Part shown: positions 1,820 through 16,211 of the stretch, one piece after another | Position numbering within the stretch: the stretch's first letter is position 1 | How the letters are laid out: the number at the start of each line of letters is the position of its first letter | Assembly: GCA_007117625.1 (NCBI GenBank) | Contig: SKGE01000033.1 | Span: 1 to 39,048 of the forward strand | Direction: 5' to 3' | DNA: 39,048 bases | Source of the DNA: Candidatus Izemoplasma sp. | GTDB lineage: Bacteria > Bacillota_I > Bacilli_A > Izemoplasmatales > Izemoplasmataceae | Notes under the pieces: model-generated | Database searches by the model: none | The model's input: only the letters and a program-made list of their open reading frames with translations | Told to the model about the DNA's origin: nothing | Translations under genes and position numbers: made by a program

Positions 1820-4303
1820 ATGAAAAAAGCACTGTTACTAATACTATTTTTAAGCACTGCAATTGGTGTTGCTGGATGTCGTAGAGATCAAGAAGATACA
1901 CCGGATCCAATTCCAACAATCTCAAACCCAAGCAACATTTTTATGGAGCTTGACGGCATCGAAATCACCAATGAAATGCTCTATAAACATATGAAAGCAA
2001 GTGAAGGTATCACCCACTTAATCAACTATGTGGATTTTATTATTCTAAGCGATATAATAGATAACTTTGATTCTGAACGGTTAGAAAATGAACGTTTAAG
2101 AATGAAATATGGCACCACCGATCAAGAGACAATCGACCGAATTCGCGCCGATGAAGAACAATATGCAGAGGTTGAGAAAAACTATTACCACAACATGATT
2201 TTTGCTGGGTTCAACCCAGAAAATCAAGCTGAAGTAGAGCGCTTTGTAGCACTAACGTTAGCGCAGCGAGATATTACCATTGATCGCTCGATTGAAAACT
2301 ATGACCCAGAACATTTACACAGTTTAGCGCGCAATCGTTATCAATCAACCAAACAGGGAGATGTCACCGCCATCGAACTGATCTTTAGAAGCAATCAAGA
2401 GTTCACCGCCATCATGCATAAATTCAATCTCGTTCCTGACTATCAAAATGGTATTGGAGAATACTTCGGGGAAACCCCAATTGAAAACTTGCGTCGCGCA
2501 GACTTTAGTTCAAATAACACGCGCTTACTCGATGAAACAGAAGTATTTGAAGCTTTTGTAGAAATTTATAACTATTTATTCCCATATCGCGATGCCATCG
2601 ATGCATCGATGACGCTCGATCATTTAGAAGCGTTTGCATCTGATGAATTTAGATTTAATTATGACGCGATGACGAACCAACCAGCACTCGAAAGAGTCGC
2701 AAATATTTTATTTAATGAACTTGATATTGAAGACAATCGCTATACCATCGAATCAAGACGCTACCACTTAAGCGCGCCCCATTTAGAAGGGTATCGAGCG
2801 ATGTATTTCTTATTAGATCAAGACGAAGTCACGCCGTTTGATGAACTACCAAGCGATGAACAAGATAGCTATAAACGCGATTACGTAGAAAGTACCATCA
2901 ACCAACAAACTCAAATCCGTGCGATGGTTGAACAACGCACCGAAGCTAACTTTGTCATCCATGACCGCATTTTACACTTTACCTATGAAGAAATGATTAG
3001 ACAAGTCTTTCCAGACTTAATTGGAGAACACGCCAAATACGAACGTGCAGACGAAGGCATCATCGCTACGATTGGCGATGAAACTGTCACAACAGATGAT
3101 TTCTTTGCTTACATGCTAAGACGTATCGGGGCTGTTAATGTCGTAGAACTTTACAAAGAACTGTGGCTTCTAGAGAGTGATTATTTTGTAGAGGTTTATG
3201 GGGAAGAGCGCAATCTTAATGAAAGTGATCATCCATCAATCCAAGAGTACCGTAATATTATCCGTGATTTTAAAGAACAAGCCGCAGCCGATATGTCATT
3301 CGAACAAGCCTTACAAATGATCGGCTTTGCAGATGAAGATGCCGTGTTAAGATTTCTAGTCGTCGGCGAGTTGTTAAACTATTTGGTAGTTCCAAACTTA
3401 GACTTTGACCGTGCCTTAGAACATGTTCAAAAAATTTATGACAACTACATTAATCTTAACGTTGAACACATCCTAATCTATCTCGATATGGATGGAGATT
3501 TATCACCCGATGACTTTAAAACATTCCTAGAAGATTTAGAAGCACAAGGTGGCATTCCGTGGGCAACTTACTTAGACCACGTCGCTAGTTTAGAAAGCTT
3601 AATTGCAACAAGACTCAATCAAGGGTATACGATGCAAGAAGTAGTGACCGAGTATCGTAACGCTTCACGCGATGAAAGTTCAAACCCATGGGCCGTATTT
3701 AAAAATTACGGATTTAAACTGCGCTATGAAGATTTATCACCAGGTAACAACGTCATCAACGCAACCACTGTCCAACGTTTTGTCACACCGTTTAGAGACC
3801 GTCTTTACGAACTCTATGCACTTTACAAAACCGAAGCCTATGAAGATGCTGAAAGCATCCTTGATCCAAGTGGAGTATTTGCGACTGATTTCGGATTGCA
3901 CTTTGTTCGCGTATCAAAAGGCAATGAAGCTGCTTTTCTTCCACCAAGTGCTGCATTTGAAGACCCAGAAGGTGATTATGATGAACGTTGGTTAAACAAA
4001 CATGACGTTCCAACCGAAGCGCAACTTAGACTTTGGGCAGAACACGCCTTTAAGCGATCTTTTACCATCGAAGGTTCAGACATTGAGATCGATGAAGATT
4101 TAGACGAAGTATTAAGAATTTACTTTGATCAATTTTTAGGAAGACACTTCCCGTTACCACAAGAAGAGTTTGATCCATTTGGGAACACTATAATGATCAA
4201 CCGTTTTATCGAAAACGATGTAACCTTTAGTATCGAGAATGACCATTTAAAAAGCATGATGCATGCCTTACTCGATCTCTATGAAAGTATTATGTATGAC
4301 TAA
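1820..4303 (+). CDS. PrsA/SurA-like peptidyl-prolyl isomerase-type foldase lipoprotein
   Basis: Lipobox-like signal (MKKALLLILFLSTAIGVAGC); two SurA_N-like starts ('FMELDGIEITNEMLYKHM', 'IATIGDETVTTDDFFAYML'); parvulin-like edges 'VEHILIYLD' and 'FATDFGLHFVRVSKG'; RBS aggaggc. Confidence 0.6.
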   Translation: MKKALLLILFLSTAIGVAGCRRDQEDTPDPIPTISNPSNIFMELDGIEITNEMLYKHMKASEGITHLINYVDFIILSDIIDNFDSERLENERLRMKYGTTDQETIDRIRADEEQYAEVEKNYYHNMIFAGFNPENQAEVERFVALTLAQRDITIDRSIENYDPEHLHSLARNRYQSTKQGDVTAIELIFRSNQEFTAIMHKFNLVPDYQNGIGEYFGETPIENLRRADFSSNNTRLLDETEVFEAFVEIYNYLFPYRDAIDASMTLDHLEAFASDEFRFNYDAMTNQPALERVANILFNELDIEDNRYTIESRRYHLSAPHLEGYRAMYFLLDQDEVTPFDELPSDEQDSYKRDYVESTINQQTQIRAMVEQRTEANFVIHDRILHFTYEEMIRQVFPDLIGEHAKYERADEGIIATIGDETVTTDDFFAYMLRRIGAVNVVELYKELWLLESDYFVEVYGEERNLNESDHPSIQEYRNIIRDFKEQAAADMSFEQALQMIGFADEDAVLRFLVVGELLNYLVVPNLDFDRALEHVQKIYDNYINLNVEHILIYLDMDGDLSPDDFKTFLEDLEAQGGIPWATYLDHVASLESLIATRLNQGYTMQEVVTEYRNASRDESSNPWAVFKNYGFKLRYEDLSPGNNVINATTVQRFVTPFRDRLYELYALYKTEAYEDAESILDPSGVFATDFGLHFVRVSKGNEAAFLPPSAAFEDPEGDYDERWLNKHDVPTEAQLRLWAEHAFKRSFTIEGSDIEIDEDLDEVLRIYFDQFLGRHFPLPQEEFDPFGNTIMINRFIENDVTFSIENDHLKSMMHALLDLYESIMYD

Positions 4304-4515: not shown

Positions 4516-7416
4516 ATGCAAATGAAGCGCATGTTTAGTCTTTTAATCCTATTTTTAGCAACGTTTGTCTTTGCAGCATGCGATTTTATTCAAACGGTTG
4601 ACATTGACCCTGACTTAGAAGTTGAATCTATCATCTTTCATGAAGGCCAGTTAGAACCGAATTATGAGGCTGGAACTTTCACAGTTACCGGACTTCAAAT
4701 CACCGTAATATTTACCGATGGCACCGAACAAAATATTAATATTACTAACGCGATGGTTTCTGGATTAAACGCCTTAGAAAACCCAGGAACGCACACAATA
4801 ACCGTGACCTATGAAGGTAACACAACAAGCTTTGATGTGGTTATTGTAGAACCTGACACACAACCACCAGTGCTCACAAGTATCCATGTTGCAAGTGATC
4901 AGCTTGCTGCTAATTACGAGATTGGTAGTTTTGATGTCACTGCTTTAAACTTAACACTTGTTTATGATGATGACTCAGAAGAAACAATTCCAATTACAAC
5001 TGCAATGGCAAGTGGCTTAGCTGCACTTACAAACCCAGGCACCCACACGATAACCATTACCTACAACAACTTGCAAACTACCTTTGATGTTGTCATCGTA
5101 GAACCAGACCCTACGAAAACTTTGACATCAATCAGTGTTAGCCCAACTCAATTATCATCAAGCTATGAGGTTGGTGCGTTTGATGTGACAACTTTAGTGC
5201 TTACGCTGATTTATAGTGACCAAACAGAAGAAACGATTCCAATTACAACCGCTATGGCAAGTGGCTTAGCTGCACTTGCAAATCCAGGCACCCACACGAT
5301 AACCATCACCTACAACAACTTGCAAACCACCTTTGATGTCGTTATCGTAGAAACAGAACCTGAGAAAACTTTGACATCAATCAGTGTGAACCCAACTCAA
5401 TTAGCATCAAGCTATGAGGTTGGTGAGTTTGATGTGACAACTTTACTGCTTACGCTGATTTATAGTGATGAATCAGAAGAAACAATTACAATTATAACAG
5501 GCATGGCAAGTGGCTTAGCTGCACTTGCAAACCCAGGCACCCACACGATAACCATTACCTATAAAAACTTACAGACAACCTTTGATGTTGTCGTTGTCGA
5601 ACCACAAACCCCGCCATCAGAAAAAGAAGCAGCTGCAGATGAAATGATTGATAACTGGGCAGGAACTGCTACGATTGTTAACGAACGTATCAATACGATG
5701 ATGAATGCAGATGCATTAACCATAACCTTAGAAAATATCACAATCATTAATGATGATGGATTTATGGAAACCATGCACCATACTGTAGAAATCACGTTCC
5801 TTTATGAAGATGGTGATGTTTATCTATGGATTGTTGAAACCATTGATCTCGGGTTTGACACCGTACATTTCGAACAACTATTTGTGTTAAAGCACGATTC
5901 CATTGATGTCTATGTAAACCTAGAATACTTACTACCGATGATTGAAGCCGAAATGGAAGAAGAAGGGTTCAATCTATTAGAACTGTTTGATGTTGAGTTT
6001 GATTGGTTTAAACTGACCATCGATGATACGATGCAAAGTATTATTGAACTCGATTTATTAGAAACCTTGTTCGAACTTTATGAACTTGATATTTATCTAG
6101 AAAATGCGCTTTCTGATATGGGCATTGACCCTGAAGAACTCGACCTTTATCTTGAAGAACTCGAAGTTCTAATTACGAGTGCCTTAGATGCGTATTTACC
6201 ACATTTAGAAACATTAACAACCTTGCTAGATGAAGAAATGCTTTTATCTATGGATAAAACAGAAGACTTCTTAGTCGTCTTGGCCATGGACATGAACCTC
6301 GAGATTTTTGCAGGGTTGATCGCCGAATTATTGATGGAAACCTATGATTTCATCATTGAACATGAGCTTGAAGATCCCGAATACATGGCATTACCACCAA
6401 ATGAAGCTCAAATACTAGAACTTATAGAGATACTACCTATGCTTGAAATGGAATGGATTTTTGATCCGCTTAATGAAGATATCATGTCAATGTACATCGA
6501 CCTTTCACCGTTTTACAACATGGTTATGGATATGGAAGGCCATACCTTGATTTTTGAAGAGGTTTCATTCAAAGTCACGTTTGAACGTACTGCGAATATT
6601 GAACTTCCAACTGAGTATAACGATGTTCACCGTATCATTACCGAATTTAGCAAACTAATGATTTTAGCAGATGTTTTTGATCCAATAGACTTTGTACTTG
6701 AATTAGGCGAAGGCGTTCATACATTACGCGAGGTTGGATTCTATGTCATGGCACCAATTTATGATTTAGACTTATCAACCTATACCATCACTGAAGATGA
6801 CGTAATCATCGAAATTTATTACATCGACGGGCGTGCGGTTTTCTCAGAAGCTGTATCGTTTGAAGCATTATCAGATATCATCGATGAAGACATGGATGGG
6901 CCGAACTTCACTCGTGAAGAATTTGAGACACTACTCGAACTATTCGATGAAGAAAATTACCATCTGACACGCTTCATTGTCCTACTCATTGCAGAAATTA
7001 TTTATAACCCTCCATTTGATGGCGGTAACGGCTATGAAGAAACCTTAGAACAGCAATTTGTTCACTATGCTTTAGAAGTCGTTTATGCCGCAGAAGTATA
7101 TTGTAACTCACTAGACTTTGAATCGCCTGAATATGCTAATTACTGTGTTTCGGATGGTTTTGACGGTGCTGCTTATTATTTAACTGAAGATGAATTATTA
7201 CCGCATCTATGGATACCACTTCCACCTGAATATAATTACGCCATATGGCGAAATGAAATGTTCGAATGGGAACTCATTGTTTATAGTGATGACTTTGAAT
7301 ATTATGGACCTGGTTGGAGCATCAATGAATGGACAATTTCACCAAGATCTGGTGCGACACTAGAAGATTTGATAGAATTTCTTGATTGGGAAAATAGATC
7401 GCGTCCAACCGAGTAA
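4516..7416 (+). CDS. Large acidic lipoprotein with four tandem bacterial Ig-like (Big_3-like) domains
   Basis: Signal/lipobox 'LLILFLATFVFAAC'; four repeats of about 80 aa ending 'NPGTHTITITYNNLQTTFDVVIVEP'; C-terminal part paralogous to the 2-1666 product. An in-frame alternative start at 4522 (MKRMF) is possible. Confidence 0.8.
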   Translation: MQMKRMFSLLILFLATFVFAACDFIQTVDIDPDLEVESIIFHEGQLEPNYEAGTFTVTGLQITVIFTDGTEQNINITNAMVSGLNALENPGTHTITVTYEGNTTSFDVVIVEPDTQPPVLTSIHVASDQLAANYEIGSFDVTALNLTLVYDDDSEETIPITTAMASGLAALTNPGTHTITITYNNLQTTFDVVIVEPDPTKTLTSISVSPTQLSSSYEVGAFDVTTLVLTLIYSDQTEETIPITTAMASGLAALANPGTHTITITYNNLQTTFDVVIVETEPEKTLTSISVNPTQLASSYEVGEFDVTTLLLTLIYSDESEETITIITGMASGLAALANPGTHTITITYKNLQTTFDVVVVEPQTPPSEKEAAADEMIDNWAGTATIVNERINTMMNADALTITLENITIINDDGFMETMHHTVEITFLYEDGDVYLWIVETIDLGFDTVHFEQLFVLKHDSIDVYVNLEYLLPMIEAEMEEEGFNLLELFDVEFDWFKLTIDDTMQSIIELDLLETLFELYELDIYLENALSDMGIDPEELDLYLEELEVLITSALDAYLPHLETLTTLLDEEMLLSMDKTEDFLVVLAMDMNLEIFAGLIAELLMETYDFIIEHELEDPEYMALPPNEAQILELIEILPMLEMEWIFDPLNEDIMSMYIDLSPFYNMVMDMEGHTLIFEEVSFKVTFERTANIELPTEYNDVHRIITEFSKLMILADVFDPIDFVLELGEGVHTLREVGFYVMAPIYDLDLSTYTITEDDVIIEIYYIDGRAVFSEAVSFEALSDIIDEDMDGPNFTREEFETLLELFDEENYHLTRFIVLLIAEIIYNPPFDGGNGYEETLEQQFVHYALEVVYAAEVYCNSLDFESPEYANYCVSDGFDGAAYYLTEDELLPHLWIPLPPEYNYAIWRNEMFEWELIVYSDDFEYYGPGWSINEWTISPRSGATLEDLIEFLDWENRSRPTE
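4621..5600 (+). repeat. Four in-frame tandem Ig-like repeats (about 249-bp period)
   Basis: 'TTGACATCAATCAGTGT' recurs at 5122 and 5371 (249 bp apart). Repeats 2-4 share long near-identical DNA such as 'GCAAGTGGCTTAGCTGCACTT..AAACCCAGGCACCCACACGATAACC'; repeat 1 is divergent. Confidence 0.9.
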
Positions 7417-7431
7417 TAAAACCGCTTTATT

Positions 7432-7459
7432 AAAGGCACATCTTGATGTGCCTTTTTCT
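7432..7459 (+). terminator. Intrinsic terminator
   Basis: aaaggcaca-tcttga-tgtgccttt then TTT. Confidence 0.85.
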
Positions 7460-7472
7460 TTGAAAAAATACG

Positions 7473-7502
7473 TTGACAACGCTTACATTTAAAGACTATA
7501 AT
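7473..7502 (+). promoter_or_regulatory. Sigma-A promoter of the lysine fermentation operon
   Basis: Perfect TTGACA (7473-7478), 18-nt spacer, perfect TATAAT (7497-7502). Confidence 0.85.
7474..7487 (+). promoter_or_regulatory. cre-like site (predicted CcpA operator) overlapping the -35
   Basis: TGACAACGCTTACA fits TGWNANCGNTNWCA fully (one mismatch to the stricter TGWAANCGNTNWCA). Confidence 0.55.
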
Positions 7503-7513
7503 GGATGTAGAAA

Positions 7514-7700
7514 GCGTTACAGAGGTGCGTTTTATTGGTATTTTATAAGGGCTTAAGAAGAGAGGCCTTCGACCTTATAAAAGAAGGAGTAAGACGCCGA
7601 AGGTTTTTATGGCCTTTCATAAAAACTTGGTGGTTGCAGGCACACTTCAACCATTGCCATTTTAAAAATGGAGAGCTGTTTATTTTAAACAGCTCTTTTA
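7514..7700 (+). ncRNA. Lysine riboswitch (L-box / LYS element) with overlapping expression platform
   Basis: Conserved AGAGGUGCG (7521-7529), ACGCCGAAGG (7594-7603) and GGAGAGCUG (7670-7678). Helices: P1 acag 7519-7522/ctgt 7676-7679; P2 gcgtttta 7527-7534/taagacgc 7590-7597; upper P2 ttataagg/ccttataa and gaag/cttc; P3 gtttttatg/cataaaaac; P4 tggttg 7631-7636/caacca 7648-7653; P5 ccattt 7657-7662/aaatgg 7666-7671. L2 (gaggc) and L3 (gcctt) loops are complementary (kissing loop). Confidence 0.93.
7673..7700 (+). terminator. Riboswitch-controlled intrinsic terminator
   Basis: gagctgttt (7673-7681)/aaacagctc (7687-7695), perfect 9 bp, followed by TTTT; 5' arm includes the P1 3' strand CUGU. 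Confidence 0.85.
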
Positions 7701-7726
7701 TATTTATAATAGTGAGGTGCAAAAAA

Positions 7727-8137
7727 ATGATTAAAACCATGCAAGTCGGAGATCAACGTTCGTACCAACGCATTATTACTAAAGAAGATGTTATCAAGTT
7801 TGGAGAAGTTACTGGAGATATGAACCCAGCACACTATGATGAAGCATATACACGGACCACGATGTTTAAAAAACCAATCGTTCACGGTATGCTCGTTGGT
7901 TCGTTGTTTTCCAAAATATTTGGAATGGAGTATCCAGGGGTTGGAACGATTTACTGTAGTCAAAGCTTGACATTCTTAAAGCCGATTTATCCAGATACTA
8001 AGCTAACCGTTAAAGTTACTATAAAAAGTATCAATGAAGAAAAAAATCGTGTCATTTTTACCACAGAAATATTCAATCATAGCGGCGACCTTGCCTTAAC
8101 CGGTGAAGCAATGTTAATGCCGAGAAAGGATGTTTGA
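7727..8137 (+). CDS. MaoC-like dehydratase / (R)-specific enoyl-CoA hydratase-like protein
   Basis: Hot-dog motif 'FGEVTGDMNPAHYDEAYTRTTMFKKPIVHGMLVGSLFS'; RBS gtgaggtgc; the 7535 alternative start would run through the riboswitch. Confidence 0.85.
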   Translation: MIKTMQVGDQRSYQRIITKEDVIKFGEVTGDMNPAHYDEAYTRTTMFKKPIVHGMLVGSLFSKIFGMEYPGVGTIYCSQSLTFLKPIYPDTKLTVKVTIKSINEEKNRVIFTTEIFNHSGDLALTGEAMLMPRKDV

Positions 8138-8138
8138 A

Positions 8139-8798
8139 ATGAAAAAGCAATTAGATAAAAAGACCTTTCTTAGCGCTTTGAAAGATGGACAATCGATTAT
8201 GGTAGGTGGCTTTATGGCAGTAGGAACGCCAGAAGTATTCATCGATTGGATCGTCGAAAGCAACGTTCAAAATTTAACGATTATTTGTAATGATGCTGGA
8301 TTTGAAGACAAAGGTGTTGGTAAGCTTATTGCCAACCATCAAGTAAAAAAATTGATTGCATCTCATATTGGTTTAAACCCAGAAGCCGGCAAACGCATGG
8401 GTGAAGGAACACTAACCGTAGAACTTGTTCCTCAAGGGACGCTTGTTGAACAAATCCGTGCTCATGGTGCTGGGCTTGGTGGCATATTGACCCCAACTGG
8501 TATTGGAACGATTGTCGAAGAAAACAAACAGAAAATTATTATCGATCAAAAAGCGTATTTACTTGAAGTTGCGCTCGGTGCTGATCTGGCTTTAATCCAA
8601 GCAAAAACAAGTGATATATACGGCAATCTTGTTTACGATAAAACGGCGCGGAATTTCAATCCGATGATGGCTTCTGCTGCAGAAACAGTGTTTGCCTATG
8701 TTGATGCTGTGATAGACCATTTAGATCCAGAAACGATTGTAACACCTCATGTTTTCATTGATGGTGTTGTTGCTAAGGAGGATACCAATGAATCCTAA
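8139..8798 (+). CDS. atoD: Acetate/butyrate-acetoacetate CoA-transferase subunit A
   Basis: CoA-transferase I alpha features ('MVGGFMAVGTPEVFIDWIV', 'TPTGIGTIVEE', 'YGNLVYDKTARNFNPMMASAA'); start set by AAAGGA RBS (8130 possible). Confidence 0.88.
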   Translation: MKKQLDKKTFLSALKDGQSIMVGGFMAVGTPEVFIDWIVESNVQNLTIICNDAGFEDKGVGKLIANHQVKKLIASHIGLNPEAGKRMGEGTLTVELVPQGTLVEQIRAHGAGLGGILTPTGIGTIVEENKQKIIIDQKAYLLEVALGADLALIQAKTSDIYGNLVYDKTARNFNPMMASAAETVFAYVDAVIDHLDPETIVTPHVFIDGVVAKEDTNES

Positions 8799-9441
8799 AG
8801 CGATTATTGCAGCACGCGTTGCAAAAGAGTTACACGACGGTGATTTAGTCAATTTAGGGATTGGTCTTCCGACCCTTGTCGCAAACTATATTCCAAACGC
8901 AATCAATGTCTTTTTACAAAGTGAAAACGGCCTTATCGGACTCGGACCTAGTCCTAGTGAAGATGAGATTGATCCTAACTTAACGAACGCCGGTGCGCAG
9001 TATGTAACGCTCAAACAAGGTGGCATGTTTTTTGATTCTGCGGTATCGTTTGGTATTATTCGTGGTGGCCATGTGGATGTCACGGTATTAGGTGCTTTAG
9101 AGGTTGATCAAGAAGGCTCACTTGCGAGTTGGATCATCCCAGGCAAACTTGTTCCAGGCATGGGAGGCGCGATGGATTTAGTCGTTGGCGCTAAAAAAGT
9201 CATCATCGCAACAACCCATACCAATAAAGGCAAACCCAAAATTAAAAAACAATGCTCACTTCCATTAACTGCCTACAAAGAAGTCGATATGATTGTGACC
9301 GAAATGGCAGTCATCGAAGTAAGGTTTGATGGTCTGCATCTCATCGAACGTCATCCAGCAGTAAGCATTGAGACAATTATCGAACATACAGATGCAGAGC
9401 TGATTATAAACGACGTAAAACTCATGGAGGTAAACGAATGA
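8788..9441 (+). CDS. atoA: Acetate/butyrate-acetoacetate CoA-transferase subunit B
   Basis: CoA-transferase I beta features ('[16 protein letters not shown]', '[10 protein letters not shown]', '[15 protein letters not shown]', 'GMGGAMDLV'); RBS aaggagg before ATG 8788. Confidence 0.9.
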
Positions 9442-9827
9442 AAGTCATACATAAAGTACGCTTATCACAAGCGGATGCACACTATGGAGGAAATCTTGTT
9501 GATGGTGCCAAAGCCTTAGCTTATTTTGGTGATGTTGCAACGGAACTACTCATCAGAAACGACGGTGACGAGGGGTTGTTTCGTGCCTACGACAGTGTCG
9601 ATTTTTTAGCCCCTATGTACGCGGGAGATATTATCGAAATTGAAGGTGAAATAACTCACATCGGTAACACTTCCCGTAAAATGACATTTGCCTGTCGTAA
9701 AGTTGCTATAGCAAGACCAGACATTAACGAAAGTGCGGCAGAGTATCTCAAAACACCGATTGTAACCACCCAAGCAACAGGCACCTGCATCGTGCCAAAA
9801 GACAAACAGAGGTTCAGTCATGGATAA
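9438..9827 (+). CDS. kal: 3-aminobutyryl-CoA ammonia-lyase
   Basis: Small hot-dog protein ('[17 protein letters not shown]', '[19 protein letters not shown]'); position between CoA-transferase and kce. Confidence 0.88.
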
Positions 9828-10662
9828 ACTGATTATAACGTGTGCGATTAGTGGTGCTGAGGTTATGAAAGAACATAACCCTTACGTCCCTTATACGATA
9901 GAAGAAATGGTTCGAGAAGCGACACTTGCCTATCAAGCCGGTGCCTCAATCATCCATCTACATGCACGCTATGACGATGGAACCCCAACCCAAGATAAAG
10001 ACCGCTATGAAGCGATTATCAAAGCGATTCGTCAAGCCTGTCCAGACGTGATTATTCAACCATCGACTGGAGGTGCGGTAGGCATGAGTAAAGAAGAGCG
10101 GATGCAAGTAACAGAGCTCCCGCTTGAGATGGCGACCCTTGATTGTGGTACGCTTAACTTTGGCGGCGATGAAATCTTTGTTAACACAGAAAATGATATT
10201 AAATACTTTGCCCGCGTCATGCATGAAAAAAACATCTACCCAGAACTTGAATGCTTTGAAAAAGGACACATTGATATGGTCTTAAGACTACATAAGAAAG
10301 GCTTCATCCACGCTCCACTTCACTTTAGTTTTGTTCTCGGTGTCAACGGTGGCATGACCGGTGAACCACGTGATTTTCACTTTTTAAGAGAAAGCATCCC
10401 AAGCGATGCCACCTATAGCGTTGCAGGGATTGGAAGGTTTGAGTTTCCACTTGCAAAACTATCCATTCAAAACGGTGGACATGTTCGCGTTGGATTAGAA
10501 GATAACATCTACATTGATAAAGGGGTTTTAGCTCAAGGAAACAAAGCCTTAGTCGAAAAGGTTGTTGAACTTGCTCGACAAGAAAACCGCTCGATTGCAA
10601 CCCCGAATGAAGCTAGAAAAATACTTAGAATGGAGACCTTTAACGATGAAAACACCCTGTAA
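9820..10662 (+). CDS. kce: 3-keto-5-aminohexanoate cleavage enzyme
   Basis: BKACE/DUF849 family motifs ('ITCAISGAE', '[10 protein letters not shown]', '[11 protein letters not shown]', '[11 protein letters not shown]'). Confidence 0.93.
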
Positions 10663-11677
10663 ATACGGAACCCACCGTGTGGTTAAACCACAAGGCGTAC
10701 TTCCTCAAGCCGCAGATACTATAGACAATACGATGGAACTTTATCCTAATGAGATTAAAATCGAAGTCGACACGTTAAACATCGATTCAGCATCGTTTCA
10801 TCAAATTAAACACGCGTGTCACAATGACGTAGAGAAAATGAAAACGATGATTTTAGAGATTGTTAATACCCGTGGTAAAATGCAAAACCCGGTCACAAAA
10901 AGTGGTGGTATGTTAATCGGAACCGTTTCTGAAATTGGCGGGGCATTTCACAACCAAAAATTAACGGTTGGCACAAAAATTGCGACGCTTGTTTCACTTT
11001 CATTAACCCCTTTAAAGATTGAAGAAATACTCGACATTAACATCAATAACGATCAAGTTAGAATTAAAGGACAAGCCGTTTTATTTGATTCAGGTATTTA
11101 TGCAGAACTTCCAAAAGATATGGATGCGCATTTAGCACTCGCAGCTTTAGATGTTGCTGGTGCACCAGCACAAGTCAAAAAGCTTGCCAAACAAGGTGAC
11201 ACAGTTCTCATCGTTGGAGCGGCAGGAAAAAGTGGCTTGCTCTGTGCCATGCAAGCTCACCAAAGCGTCGGAAAAGATGGAAAAGTGATTGGACTTGTCA
11301 ATGAAGCTTGGCAAGCTGAACTGCTTGAAAAAATGTCTTTATGCGACACCGTTTTACTCGCGGATGCAACGAATGCAGTCGCTGTTTATGAAGCCGTTCA
11401 ATCAGTCTCAAGCGAACTTGCTGATGTAAGCATAAACGTTGTTAATGTTGAAAATACAGAAATGGGAACCATCCTCGCCACCAAAGATGATGGTATTGTC
11501 TACTTTTTCTCTATGGCAACCTCATTCACTAAAGCCGCTTTAGGCGCAGAAGGTGTCGGCAAAGATGTCACGATGATTATCGGTAATGGTTACACTAAAG
11601 CCCATGCGGAAATAACGCTAGACATCGTTCGAAAAAACCCGAAACTAAAAGCACTGTTTGAAGAAAAATACGTTTAA
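10646..11677 (+). CDS. kdd: L-erythro-3,5-diaminohexanoate dehydrogenase
   Basis: '[18 protein letters not shown]' N-terminus, Rossmann 'VLIVGAAGKSGLLCAMQA'; operon context; start 10646 overlaps kce by 17 nt. Confidence 0.9.
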   Translation: MKTPCKYGTHRVVKPQGVLPQAADTIDNTMELYPNEIKIEVDTLNIDSASFHQIKHACHNDVEKMKTMILEIVNTRGKMQNPVTKSGGMLIGTVSEIGGAFHNQKLTVGTKIATLVSLSLTPLKIEEILDININNDQVRIKGQAVLFDSGIYAELPKDMDAHLALAALDVAGAPAQVKKLAKQGDTVLIVGAAGKSGLLCAMQAHQSVGKDGKVIGLVNEAWQAELLEKMSLCDTVLLADATNAVAVYEAVQSVSSELADVSINVVNVENTEMGTILATKDDGIVYFFSMATSFTKAALGAEGVGKDVTMIIGNGYTKAHAEITLDIVRKNPKLKALFEEKYV

Positions 11678-11692
11678 ACAAGGAGTGATTCG

Positions 11693-12961
11693 ATGAAACT
11701 TTCATTAAACGATAGATATCTACAACGCAAAAATAAATACTTTCCAAACGTTAGCGAAACCGATTGGAATGACTGGAAATGGCAAACACGTAACCGCGTA
11801 CGCGATGTCGAAACACTCAAACAATACATCGAGCTTACCGAACGCGAAGAAACGATTATTAACGATGTACTCGGTCGTTTTAGAATGGCCATCACTCCTT
11901 ATTACTTAACCTTGATTGATCCCACCGATCCGGAATGTCCGATGCGACTTCAAGCAATCCCTTTAGGAAACGAACTCGAAGTCGGTAAACACGATCTATT
12001 AGACCCACTTGCTGAAGACCATGACTCGCCCGTTCCAGGGTTGACGCACCGCTATCCAGATCGGGTTTTGTTTTTAATCACTGACATGTGTAGTATGTAC
12101 TGTAGACATTGTACTAGAAGACGCTTCGCAGGCATGCGTGATGCCGAGACCAGCTTAGACCAAATCAATCAAGGCATCACCTACATTAAAAATAACCCAG
12201 AAATTCGAGATGTTCTTTTAAGTGGTGGCGACGCTTTCTTAGTCAGTGATGAACGCATCGAATATATCTTAGAAAAACTTCGAGAAATTGATCACGTTGA
12301 AGTCATCCGTTTCGGTTCACGAACACCAGTTGTAATGCCACAACGCATTACCGATAAACTCGTCAATATCTTAAAGAAACATCAACCAGTATGGGTCAAC
12401 ACCCACTTCAACCATCCCGATGAGATTACCATCGAAAGCAAAGCAGCCTTAGACCGTCTTGCAAACGCTGGAATTCCACTTGGAAATCAAAGTGTTCTAT
12501 TAAGAGGTGTTAACGATTGTGTCCATATTATGCGTCGGCTCGTCACCACCCTTGTCGCTGTTAGAGTCCGTCCATACTACATTTATCAGTGTGATTTATC
12601 GATGGGAATCGAACACTTTAGAACGCCAGTCAGTAAAGGTATAGAAATCATCGAAGGTCTTCGCGGACACATCAGCGGTTTTGCGGTCCCAACCTATGTT
12701 GTCGATGCACCCGGTGGTGGCGGAAAAATCCCGGTCATGCCAAACTACATCATTTCATCTGCCCCAGGAAAAATGGTATTGAGAAACTACGAAGGTGTGA
12801 TTACGACCTATAGTGAACCAACCCACTATGTCTCAGAATGTACATGTTCCGATTGCCAAAGCACAAAAACCGATGGCGTCAGCGGCTTATTACACGGTGA
12901 GCGCATTGCCTTAGAACCGAGCGTATTAGCCCGTAACGAGCGTATTAAACGTGAAAATTAA
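11693..12961 (+). CDS. kamA: L-lysine 2,3-aminomutase
   Basis: Radical-SAM cluster 'CSMYCRHCTRRRFAG', 'DVLLSGGDAFLVSD', 'FNHPDEIT', 'VDAPGGGGKIPVMPNY'. Confidence 0.96.
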   Translation: MKLSLNDRYLQRKNKYFPNVSETDWNDWKWQTRNRVRDVETLKQYIELTEREETIINDVLGRFRMAITPYYLTLIDPTDPECPMRLQAIPLGNELEVGKHDLLDPLAEDHDSPVPGLTHRYPDRVLFLITDMCSMYCRHCTRRRFAGMRDAETSLDQINQGITYIKNNPEIRDVLLSGGDAFLVSDERIEYILEKLREIDHVEVIRFGSRTPVVMPQRITDKLVNILKKHQPVWVNTHFNHPDEITIESKAALDRLANAGIPLGNQSVLLRGVNDCVHIMRRLVTTLVAVRVRPYYIYQCDLSMGIEHFRTPVSKGIEIIEGLRGHISGFAVPTYVVDAPGGGGKIPVMPNYIISSAPGKMVLRNYEGVITTYSEPTHYVSECTCSDCQSTKTDGVSGLLHGERIALEPSVLARNERIKREN

Positions 12962-13940
12962 TCTTCAAAATTACGATGTCATCGGGATCATTGGTCTAGC
13001 TAAAAATACTGGAAAAACAACCACACTCAACGCCCTCATAAAAGATTTACCCGCAGACCAAACCGCGATTACAAGTATCGGACTCGATGGAGAAACCATC
13101 GATCAGTTAACCTATTTGCCCAAACCTAAAATATACGCCAAAAAAGGCATTATCATCGCGACCACAACAGAATGTTTAAAACAATCGTATCTCGACTATG
13201 AAACGATAGAATCAACAAACATTAAAACCGCTATTGGTCGCGTGATTATCGTAAAAATCATCTCAGAAGGCTACATCGTCGTTGCCGGACCAACGACGAA
13301 TAGCGCTTTAAAAACAATTATAAAAAAGCTCAAAAAGTATGCTAAAAAAATCCTTATTGATGGCGCTTTTAATCGCTTGACATTCGCTAACATCGACTGT
13401 ATTGGGGGGATTATTCTCGCCACAGGTGCTAGCGTGAACGCCTCGATGGAAAAAACCGTTGAATATACCCAATCCATCCTAGCAAGTTTTCACTACCCAA
13501 AAGTAAAGTACGATCTACCACTGCAAGCACCCATGATGGTGCAAACCGGAAAAGAAACCTTTTTTGTCAAGAAAAAAACCAGCCAAGCGCTCCATCAACT
13601 AAATTTCAAAGAACCACTACAAAGACTTTACATCAAAGGTGCCATTACGCCTAGTTTAATTGACGGATTTATCAAACACGACATTCGAAACTTCACCCTT
13701 ATTTTAGAGGATGCCACGAAACTTTTAATTCCTCCTAAATACTATAAACACCTAAAAACTTTAAATATTGAAATCGTCGTTAGACAAGCCATTAACCTTA
13801 TAGCAGTAACCATCAATCCAACCAGTCCAAAAGGCATAAACTATCCGAAAAAAGACTTTTTAGAAGCCATACAAGCTATCTCAACCGTACCAGTATATAA
13901 TGTTAAAGAAAGTGAGGAAGCCGATGAAACTCATCCTTGA
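12951..13940 (+). CDS. kamB: KamB-like P-loop protein (putative lysine 5,6-aminomutase reactivase subunit)
   Basis: Walker A 'GLAKNTGKTTTLN'; located between kamA and kamD as in known kam clusters. Confidence 0.75.
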   Translation: MKINLQNYDVIGIIGLAKNTGKTTTLNALIKDLPADQTAITSIGLDGETIDQLTYLPKPKIYAKKGIIIATTTECLKQSYLDYETIESTNIKTAIGRVIIVKIISEGYIVVAGPTTNSALKTIIKKLKKYAKKILIDGAFNRLTFANIDCIGGIILATGASVNASMEKTVEYTQSILASFHYPKVKYDLPLQAPMMVQTGKETFFVKKKTSQALHQLNFKEPLQRLYIKGAITPSLIDGFIKHDIRNFTLILEDATKLLIPPKYYKHLKTLNIEIVVRQAINLIAVTINPTSPKGINYPKKDFLEAIQAISTVPVYNVKESEEADETHP

Positions 13941-15474
13941 TTACAACATCGTTGAAGCCTGTCGTAAAGACGCCGAAATAATCGCGAGTCAAATTCAAAC
14001 GATGATCGACCAACACAGCACTGTCGCGGTCGAAAGAACCATCCTTAGAATGTTAGGGATCGATGGCGTTAACGAGTTTGACATTCCTTATGTCAATGTC
14101 GTTGTCGACCATATCAAATCAACCGCAGACATTCGCAAAGGGGTTGCTTACTATCTTGCAAAGGTTATAGAAAAAGAAAACCTCACCCCTCAAGCCATCG
14201 CAGAGGCTATCTCTAAAAAAACCATAAATCTAGCTGATTATGATTCACCTGAAAAGCCTAATATAGAACTCTTAACGCCACATTTAGAAACTACAGAAGC
14301 ACAAATACGCGCCCAAAAAGCAACGCGTAAGCAATGGCAAAAAGAAACACAGTTCCCAGAAAAATATGTCATCGTCGCAACTGGAAATATCTATGAAGAT
14401 ATCGAACAGGCTATTTCAGCCGCTAAAAAAGGCGCTGATATTATTGCAGTGATTCGTACAACTGGACAATCGCTGCTTGATTACGTCCCCCATGGGGCGA
14501 CCACTGAAGGCTTTGGAGGGACCTATGCGACCCAAGAAAACTTTAGACTGATGCGCAAAGCACTTGATGAAGTATCCAAAACCGAAAATCGATACATTAA
14601 GCTCGTCAACTATGCTAGCGGTTTATGCATGCCAGAAATCGCTGCCATGGGCGCGATAGAACGTCTAGATATGATGTTAAACGACTCACTATATGGCATC
14701 ATTTTCCGCGATATCAACATGAAAAGAACTTTTGTTGACCAATATTTTTCACGCGTCATTTCAGCCTACGCCGAGATCACGATTAACACCGGAGAAGATA
14801 ACTATCTCACCACGTCAGATGCTTTTGATCATGCCCACACCGTCATTGCTTCACAGTTTATCAACGAACAATTTGCTAAAAAAGCATCCATGCCAGAAAC
14901 ACTCATGGGGCTTGGACATGCTTATGAGATTGATCCAAACCTTGAAAACAGCTTTAGTTATGAAATCGCACAAGCACAACTTTCAAGACAACTCTTTCCA
15001 AACGCTCCACTCAAGTACATGCCACCGACAAAACACATGACAGGGGATATCTTTCAAGGTACCATGCAAAATACATTGTTTAATATCGCCTCAGTCATAA
15101 CCCAGCAAAACATCCATTTACTCGGCATGTTAACTGAAGCGATTCACACGCCATTTATGAGCGATCGCGCCATCGCCTTAAACAATGCCAATTATATGTA
15201 TAAAGCATTCAAAGACTTCGCCGCTACGATTGATATTAAAGAAGGAAGTCTTATTGATCAGCGCGCAAAAACCGTCTTAAATGAGGCCAAGCAATTACTC
15301 GATACGATTCGCGAAGAAGGTCTATTTAAAACATTAGAAAAGGGGACCTTTGCAGGTGTATCTCGCAAAGAAACTCAAGGAAAAGGATTAGATGGTGTCT
15401 TTAAAAAAGCAAACGTGTATCAAAACCCAGTTATCGATCGTATGCTTGCATCCTTAAAGGAGGGAACATCATGA
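13924..15474 (+). CDS. kamD: D-lysine 5,6-aminomutase alpha subunit
   Basis: 'AATGNIYEDIEQAISAAKKGADIIAVIRTTGQSLLDYVPHGATTEGFGGTYATQENF'; 516 aa; start 13924 after gtgagga RBS. Confidence 0.95.
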   Translation: MKLILDYNIVEACRKDAEIIASQIQTMIDQHSTVAVERTILRMLGIDGVNEFDIPYVNVVVDHIKSTADIRKGVAYYLAKVIEKENLTPQAIAEAISKKTINLADYDSPEKPNIELLTPHLETTEAQIRAQKATRKQWQKETQFPEKYVIVATGNIYEDIEQAISAAKKGADIIAVIRTTGQSLLDYVPHGATTEGFGGTYATQENFRLMRKALDEVSKTENRYIKLVNYASGLCMPEIAAMGAIERLDMMLNDSLYGIIFRDINMKRTFVDQYFSRVISAYAEITINTGEDNYLTTSDAFDHAHTVIASQFINEQFAKKASMPETLMGLGHAYEIDPNLENSFSYEIAQAQLSRQLFPNAPLKYMPPTKHMTGDIFQGTMQNTLFNIASVITQQNIHLLGMLTEAIHTPFMSDRAIALNNANYMYKAFKDFAATIDIKEGSLIDQRAKTVLNEAKQLLDTIREEGLFKTLEKGTFAGVSRKETQGKGLDGVFKKANVYQNPVIDRMLASLKEGTS

Positions 15475-16211
15475 GCCGGTTCATTCGCCCATACGGAGAT
15501 ACGATGAACGATGGTAAAGTTCAGTTATCCTTCACTCTCCCAGTTGAAAATAATGCCCACGGTGAAGCCTGCGCAAAAGCCTATGCTGAAACGCTGAAAA
15601 TTCACGATGTCGCTGTCGTACACGCTGAAACCTTAAGCGAAGAATACACCTTCTTTGTTGTTTATGGGACAGCTAGTGAACAACTTGATCCATCAACCAT
15701 CAAAGCTACCGAAGTCGAAAGTGATGTTATGGATAAAGCAGAGATCGAAGCTTTTATCGAAAAAAACTTTAATCGCACCCTAACGTTTATTGGTGCATCC
15801 ACAGGAACCGATGCGCATACAGTTGGTATTGATGCGATCATGAATATGAAAGGCTATAGTGGTCATTACGGTTTAGAGCGATACAAACATATCAATGCGA
15901 TAAACTTAGGATCTCAAGTTGATAACGAAGCGCTTTTAGAAGCTGCAATTGAACATCAAGCTGACGTAATTTTAATCAGCCAAACCGTAACTCAAAAAGA
16001 TGTACATATTCAAAATCTCACAGCTTTTATTGAACTTTTAGAAGCCGAAAACAAGCGTGATGATTTTATTGTCATCATTGGAGGAGCACGCATAAGCCAT
16101 CACCTCGCTAAAGAACTTGGCTATGATGCGGGCTTCGGACCAAAAAAATTCGCTTTTCATGTCGCGAGTTTTGCCGTACAAGCATTGCTCGAAAAAGAAA
16201 AGAATGTGTAA
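15471..16211 (+). CDS. kamE: D-lysine 5,6-aminomutase beta subunit (B12-binding)
   Basis: Base-off B12 motif DxHxxG in 'GTDAHTVGIDAIMNMKGYSGHYGLERY'; 'IIGGARISHHLAKELGYDAGFGP'; 4-nt overlap with kamD. Confidence 0.95.
   Translation: MSRFIRPYGDTMNDGKVQLSFTLPVENNAHGEACAKAYAETLKIHDVAVVHAETLSEEYTFFVVYGTASEQLDPSTIKATEVESDVMDKAEIEAFIEKNFNRTLTFIGASTGTDAHTVGIDAIMNMKGYSGHYGLERYKHINAINLGSQVDNEALLEAAIEHQADVILISQTVTQKDVHIQNLTAFIELLEAENKRDDFIVIIGGARISHHLAKELGYDAGFGPKKFAFHVASFAVQALLEKEKNV

What the first reader, a model, noticed from the sequence alone, without database searches (positions are those of the whole stretch)
7514..7726. Lysine riboswitch in front of a lysine-degrading operon, wired as a predicted ON switch
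Seen: a full five-helix lysine aptamer, including an L2/L3 kissing complement. The 3' strand of P1 (CUGU 7676-7679, pairing ACAG 7519-7522) lies inside the 5' arm of the only terminator (gagctgttt 7673-7681 / aaacagctc 7687-7695 + U-tract). P1 and the terminator cannot coexist. Established: ligand binding stabilises P1, and most lysine riboswitches repress biosynthesis or transport genes. Inference: bound lysine keeps P1 closed, blocks the terminator and turns the fermentation genes on, the opposite polarity to classical lysC switches. I recall comparative-genomics mentions of LYS elements near lysine catabolic genes in a few anaerobes, so the association may not be wholly new. A P1-as-anti-terminator with no separate antiterminator hairpin deserves testing. 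Visible P1 is short (4 bp).
Basis: partly seen in the sequence, partly recalled or inferred. Interest (0 to 1): 0.9.

Follow-up and report, generated by a model that had tools for sequence, protein, structure and literature searches.

The report
Lysine ON riboswitch, lysine-fermentation operon
A lysine-sensing RNA switch sits in front of the genes a small anaerobic bacterium uses to ferment lysine, and its layout, conserved in dozens of relatives, predicts that lysine turns those genes on; this is a well-supported new example of an already predicted kind of switch.

Summary
Rfam RF00168 matches window 7512-7686 over its full length (79 bits, E 3.3e-19). The 4-bp P1 (7519-7522/7676-7679) shares its 3' strand with the 5' arm of the only terminator (7671-7682/7686-7697). 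The operon is an NCBIfam-verified lysine-fermentation pathway (kal, kce, kdd, kamA, kamB, kamD, kamE).

The ON reading is well supported comparatively. Before this operon, the terminator takes the P1 3' strand in 48 of 51 leaders with a scored terminator. In 42 of 42 lysine riboswitches before biosynthesis or uptake genes of the same order it does not. The shared CUGU strand is frozen while its terminator partner drifts through G-U pairs.

Lysine response itself is untested. The terminator is about 9 kcal/mol more stable than the P1 state, so switching must be kinetic (inference).

The kind is not new: ON-logic lysine riboswitches and lysine riboswitches on kal/kce are in the literature (PMC2258182, PMC5584792). 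Newer here: kam-linked aptamers from Izemoplasmatales, Clostridia and a fusobacterium form one lineage apart from OFF aptamers, and a conserved cre-like box overlaps the -35.

The parts
7473..7502 (+). sigma-70 promoter, TTGACA - 18 nt - TATAAT; transcript would start near 7509-7511, just before the aptamer
   Evidence: 12 of 12 consensus matches; conserved in the kam-linked homologues
7474..7487 (+). cre-like box TGACAACGCTTACA overlapping the -35
   Evidence: 11 of the 12 scored positions of the cre core; same register in nearly all Izemoplasmatales kam promoters (10 or 11), in none of 42 other lysine-riboswitch promoters at 11
7512..7686 (+). lysine riboswitch aptamer, RF00168
   Evidence: 79.0 bits, E 3.3e-19, model 1-182 of 182
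7519..7522 (+). P1 5' strand ACAG
7560..7567 (+). L2 segment GAGAGGCC of the L2/L3 kissing interaction
7611..7618 (+). L3 segment GGCCUUUC of the L2/L3 kissing interaction
7676..7679 (+). P1 3' strand CUGU, shared with the terminator 5' arm
7671..7697 (+). intrinsic terminator hairpin (12 bp, 7671-7682/7686-7697), U tract to about 7699
7727..8137 (+). MaoC-like hydratase, first gene of the operon (ATG 7727, SD GAGGTG 7714-7719)
   Evidence: PF01575 1.5e-19
8130..8798 (+). CoA-transferase subunit A
   Evidence: TIGR02429 above cut-off
8773..9441 (+). CoA-transferase subunit B (start uncertain)
   Evidence: TIGR02428 above cut-off
9438..9827 (+). kal, 3-aminobutyryl-CoA ammonia lyase
   Evidence: NF052388 above cut-off
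9820..10662 (+). kce, 3-keto-5-aminohexanoate cleavage enzyme
   Evidence: NF052387 above cut-off
10643..11677 (+). kdd, 3,5-diaminohexanoate dehydrogenase
   Evidence: NF052381 above cut-off
11693..12961 (+). kamA, lysine 2,3-aminomutase
   Evidence: TIGR03820 above cut-off
12951..13940 (+). kamB, lysine 5,6-aminomutase reactivase subunit
   Evidence: NF052386 above cut-off
13915..15474 (+). kamD, lysine 5,6-aminomutase alpha (start uncertain)
   Evidence: NF052384 above cut-off
15471..16211 (+). kamE, lysine 5,6-aminomutase beta, last gene of the operon
   Evidence: NF052385 above cut-off

Best explanation
A lysine riboswitch of class RF00168 with a direct transcription-ON platform. Without lysine, the 3' strand of the 4-bp P1 (CUGU, with the adjacent core nucleotides GAG) is captured by the emerging 3' arm AAACAGCUC, the terminator forms and transcription stops before the lysine-fermentation operon. 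With lysine, the closed aptamer holds P1 long enough for RNA polymerase to pass the U tract, so the operon is transcribed. Because the terminator is about 9 kcal/mol more stable than the P1 state, the choice must be made during transcription (kinetic control), not at equilibrium. Shown: aptamer, shared strand, mutual exclusion, operon identity, conservation. Inferred: lysine binding, kinetic control, polarity in the cell.
For: Full-length RF00168 hit. Operon of NCBIfam equivalogs for lysine fermentation. The same leader-operon association in 31 of 61 genomes searched in the order and upstream of 22 of 80 kdd loci. Terminator 5' arm overlaps the P1 3' strand in 48 of 51 kam-linked leaders with a scored terminator and in 0 of 42 others. 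P1 and terminator mutually exclusive in 47 of 50 kam-linked, compatible in 41 of 41 others. In 42 distinct leaders CUGU is invariant but for one base in one leader, its terminator partner varies only through G-U pairs, and terminator pairs beyond P1 show two-sided compensatory changes. The others precede lysA, an M20 deacetylase or an amino-acid ABC binding protein, i.e. biosynthesis and uptake. Precedent for ON logic: PMC2258182, PMC5584792.
Against: No binding, transcription or expression data. The U tract here is short (CUCUUUUAUAUUU). Energies put the terminator about 9 kcal/mol below the P1 state, so lysine could not hold it off at equilibrium; the kinetic argument is inferred. Two Clostridium leaders use a different platform and the Psychrilyobacter platform is unresolved. 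The leaders compared are related, so their counts are not independent.
Confidence: 0.9

Rival explanations
1. A classical OFF switch: lysine closes P1 and thereby promotes termination, as in lysC leaders.
For: Most lysine riboswitches work this way, and the 42 non-kam ones of this order have P1-compatible terminators.
Against: It needs a terminator compatible with P1 and an antiterminator using the P1 3' strand. Here the only terminator uses the P1 3' strand itself, no other hairpin with a U tract lies before the start codon, and this is conserved. It would also shut off lysine degradation when lysine is abundant.
Confidence: 0.04
2. The aptamer binds lysine but the hairpin acts mainly as a constitutive attenuator or on RNA stability, with regulation at the promoter (for example by the CcpA-like protein).
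For: The terminator is much more stable than P1; a cre-like box is conserved on the promoter; the genome has a CcpA-like protein and HPr kinase.
Against: The exact 4-nt sharing of P1 and terminator is conserved while neighbouring sequence changes, which a constitutive attenuator would not need.
Confidence: 0.04
3. The aptamer has drifted to another ligand of the pathway, for example beta-lysine, so that a product induces the operon.
For: Kam-linked aptamers form a lineage apart from OFF aptamers.
Against: The conserved RF00168 core elements are present at a full-length 79-bit match; no change of the binding pocket was identified here.
Confidence: 0.02

Closest known systems
Lysine riboswitches before kal/kce in Clostridium sticklandii, Fusobacterium nucleatum and Thermoanaerobacter (PMC5584792)
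   Same: Same aptamer class before lysine-fermentation genes, described as positively regulated.
   Different: Here the operon is maoC-led, in Izemoplasmatales, with a direct P1/terminator overlap traced over many genomes and contrasted with OFF-type switches of the same genomes.
ON-logic transcriptional riboswitches that bury part of a terminator on ligand binding (certain glycine, adenine and lysine riboswitches; PMC2258182)
   Same: Same logic: the ligand-stabilised helix takes a strand of the terminator, no separate antiterminator.
   Different: Lysine aptamer with a P1 of only 4 bp.
L-box OFF switches of lysC and lysA leaders
   Same: Same aptamer family and ligand class.
   Different: OFF leaders have a P1-compatible terminator and, typically, an antiterminator that pairs the P1 3' strand with the terminator 5' arm.

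Membership tests
Lysine riboswitch (RF00168) | Full-length match to the covariance model above the gathering score | tested here: met
   79.0 bits against 30, model 1-182
Lysine riboswitch (RF00168) | Five-helix junction with L2/L3 kissing loops | tested here: met
   Helices and 8-nt L2/L3 complement
Lysine riboswitch (RF00168) | Selective binding of L-lysine | not testable with these tools
   Needs in-line probing or calorimetry
Transcriptional ON riboswitch (direct P1/terminator exclusion) | Terminator 5' arm contains the P1 3' strand | tested here: met
   All 4 nt; conserved
Transcriptional ON riboswitch (direct P1/terminator exclusion) | No separate antiterminator between aptamer and gene | tested here: met
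   Only one + strand hairpin with a U tract between aptamer and start codon, and folding of 7510-7726 shows no alternative hairpin that would spare P1
Transcriptional ON riboswitch (direct P1/terminator exclusion) | Ligand increases read-through | not testable with these tools
   Needs single-round transcription
Classical OFF L-box | Terminator compatible with P1 | tested here: not met
   Mutually exclusive here; compatible in 41 of 41 non-kam leaders
Lysine-fermentation (kam) operon | kamA, kamD, kamE, kdd, kce, kal together | tested here: met
   All above NCBIfam cut-offs

The most novel reading that the evidence does not exclude
Catabolic ON-type lysine riboswitches are one lineage of aptamers that has travelled with the lysine-fermentation operon between bacterial phyla, distinct from the OFF lysine riboswitches of the same genomes, with the expression platform re-engineered (direct in Izemoplasmatales, relay in some Clostridia). 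In Izemoplasmatales it is joined to a catabolite-repression box, giving a gate that needs lysine and no preferred sugar.
Probability: 0.4. Interest if true: 0.55.

Novelty: new member of a known kind. Interest (0 to 1): 0.42.

Why it matters
It turns a passing prediction (a few lysine riboswitches with ON logic on degradation genes) into a pattern seen in dozens of genomes with an internal control: the same order uses OFF-type layouts for lysine synthesis and uptake and ON layouts for lysine fermentation. It supplies compact natural lysine-ON switches with a 4-bp P1, useful for testing how a short P1 can beat a far more stable terminator kinetically, and as lysine-inducible parts. I found no experimental test of a natural lysine ON switch in the papers searched, but most subscription papers were not available.

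Tried and rejected
Rodionov 2003 (PMC290268) and the Serganov and Patel 2009 review (PMC3744886) are not held, so the primary statement on ON lysine riboswitches was taken from papers that cite or survey it. The idea that a 4-bp P1 is special to ON switches was rejected: OFF-type switches in the order often have 3-5 bp too, and Clostridium kam switches have 10-11 bp. A strict regular expression for aptamers missed some loci and was replaced by a covariance model. The automatic terminator finder missed the hairpins of L030 and L045 (added) and picked a wrong hairpin in L096 (corrected by folding).

Full report
What is there. The window is a contig of a 1.42-Mb genome. Rfam RF00168 matches 7512-7686 on the + strand over the whole model with 79.0 bits and E 3.3e-19. 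It is the only lysine riboswitch in the genome. A perfect sigma-70 promoter lies directly upstream (7473-7502) and the previous gene has its own terminator at 7432-7455, so the leader starts its own transcript.

The genes. The ten genes from 7727 to 16211 are a MaoC-like hydratase, two CoA-transferase subunits, kal, kce, kdd, kamA, kamB, kamD and kamE. Every gene of the pathway proper passes its NCBIfam equivalog cut-off (Pfam). This is the classical fermentation of lysine to butyrate and acetate (established knowledge), i.e. lysine degradation, not synthesis.

The platform. P1 is 7519-7522/7676-7679 (4 bp). The terminator is 7671-7682/7686-7697 (-14.4 kcal/mol) and contains the whole P1 3' strand plus the G-A-G of the core joining strand. 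Forcing P1 gives -52.9 kcal/mol for 7510-7699, and the best terminator state gives -62.0. In folds ending at 7686 and 7690 the P1 fold is the minimum; from 7695 the terminator fold is. The terminator 3' arm therefore decides within about 15 nt of transcription. Lysine at physiological concentration cannot repay 9 kcal/mol at equilibrium (inference from typical binding constants), so the switch must work kinetically, as is accepted for other transcriptional riboswitches of this layout.

Comparative test. RF00168 was searched in 61 genomes of the order: 51 have it, many with two copies. Window proteins were mapped on the fetched loci: 31 genomes have the riboswitch before the kam operon, nearly always maoC first. 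A scan with kdd found 80 loci with names, 22 of them with a lysine riboswitch upstream, including three Clostridium species, Vallitalea and Psychrilyobacter. In total 53 kam-linked and 42 other aptamers were compared; a few kam-linked records are duplicates from two collections, and 42 distinct Izemoplasmatales-type leaders remain.

Result of the test. The terminator 5' arm overlaps the P1 3' strand in 48 of 51 kam-linked leaders with a scored terminator (44 by all four nucleotides) and in 0 of 42 others. L030 and L045, missed by the U-tract filter, have the same hairpin. P1 and terminator are mutually exclusive in 47 of 50 kam-linked leaders and compatible in 41 of 41 others. The others precede diaminopimelate decarboxylase, M20-family deacetylases or amino-acid ABC binding proteins (names from reading the sequences, not from a profile search). 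Many of them show the classical antiterminator, for example GGCGCU of the P1 3' side with AGCGUC of the terminator 5' arm. Eighteen genomes carry both kinds, so the polarity follows the gene, not the genome.

Covariation. In the 42 distinct leaders CUGU is invariant except for one base in one leader (L075). Its terminator partner changes only by wobble (second position UA 20, UG 19), whereas the terminator pairs beyond P1 change on both sides (UA/CG/GC, AU/UA). That is the footprint of a strand that must serve two helices. The tally used the predicted hairpin of each sequence, so it leans towards pairing; the frozen-versus-free contrast does not depend on that.

Exceptions. Clostridium KNHs214 (L096) has a direct ON hairpin with a long P1. 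In L110 and L091 the P1 3' strand pairs into a first hairpin, the true terminator lies downstream, and the strand released when P1 forms is complementary to the terminator 5' arm, by inspection. In Vallitalea (L087) folding without the P1 strand gives the long antiterminator directly. These are read as ON by relay. Psychrilyobacter (L123) is unresolved and might even be OFF.

Lineage. A tree of aptamers without P1 and platform puts 50 of 51 kam-linked aptamers, including those from Clostridium, Vallitalea and Psychrilyobacter, on one branch (99/98), apart from the other lysine aptamers of the same Clostridium genomes. A smaller set gave 100/97. Caveats: 164-169 columns, long branches, bootstrap not fully settled, and convergence of ON aptamers is not excluded.

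A second input. The -35 overlaps TGACAACGCTTACA, which fits the cre consensus at all but one scored position. The box is kept in nearly all Izemoplasmatales kam promoters and absent at that score from all 42 other promoters. The genome has a LacI-family protein nearest to CcpA (293 bits, below the 442 cut-off) and an HPr kinase above cut-off. Two other intergenic sites lie between a tryptophanase-like gene and butyrate kinase, and before pyruvate phosphate dikinase (gene names from reading the N-termini). Catabolite repression is therefore a reasonable but untested second input.

Known and new. A 2007 survey states that certain lysine riboswitches with ON logic bury pieces of terminator stems (PMC2258182). 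A 2017 survey lists lysine riboswitches before kal/kce and calls them positively regulated (PMC5584792). The finding is thus a new member of a known kind. The new content is the breadth, the within-genome contrast, the frozen shared strand, the apparent single lineage and the cre-like box.

Noticed in passing
window 7474-7487: Cre-like box TGACAACGCTTACA over the -35 of the kam promoter, conserved in the order; CcpA-like protein (G000:C3) and HPr kinase (G000:C28) in the genome.
   Followed up: partly
L188 1501-1514; L189 1501-1514: Two more intergenic cre-like sites in the own genome, before a pyruvate phosphate dikinase-like gene and between a tryptophanase-like gene and butyrate kinase.
   Followed up: partly
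L110, L091, L087 (downstream of the aptamer): Clostridium and Vallitalea kam leaders look like relay ON switches: P1 3' strand in a first hairpin whose other strand can act as antiterminator for a second hairpin.
   Followed up: partly
L123 6595-6900: Psychrilyobacter kam leader has a lysine aptamer whose platform does not show the ON layout; polarity unclear.
   Followed up: no
all kam-linked aptamers: Kam-linked lysine aptamers form a separate lineage across phyla.
   Followed up: partly
L062 1631-1776 and 3063-3209; L065 3001-3146 and 4432-4582: Two lysine riboswitches about 1.4 kb apart, one before an M20 deacetylase-like gene and one before lysA.
   Followed up: no
L026, L027, L036, L039, L064, L066, L067: A third group of lysine riboswitches with a P1 of 12-13 bp, before M20-family deacetylase-like genes.
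   Followed up: partly
L014, L047, L054: In some relatives a short-chain dehydrogenase-like gene is inserted between the riboswitch and maoC.
   Followed up: no
window 4516-7416: 966-aa protein with a bacterial Ig-like domain upstream of the riboswitch; the two large ORFs before it (11-1666, 1820-4303) have no Pfam match.
   Followed up: no
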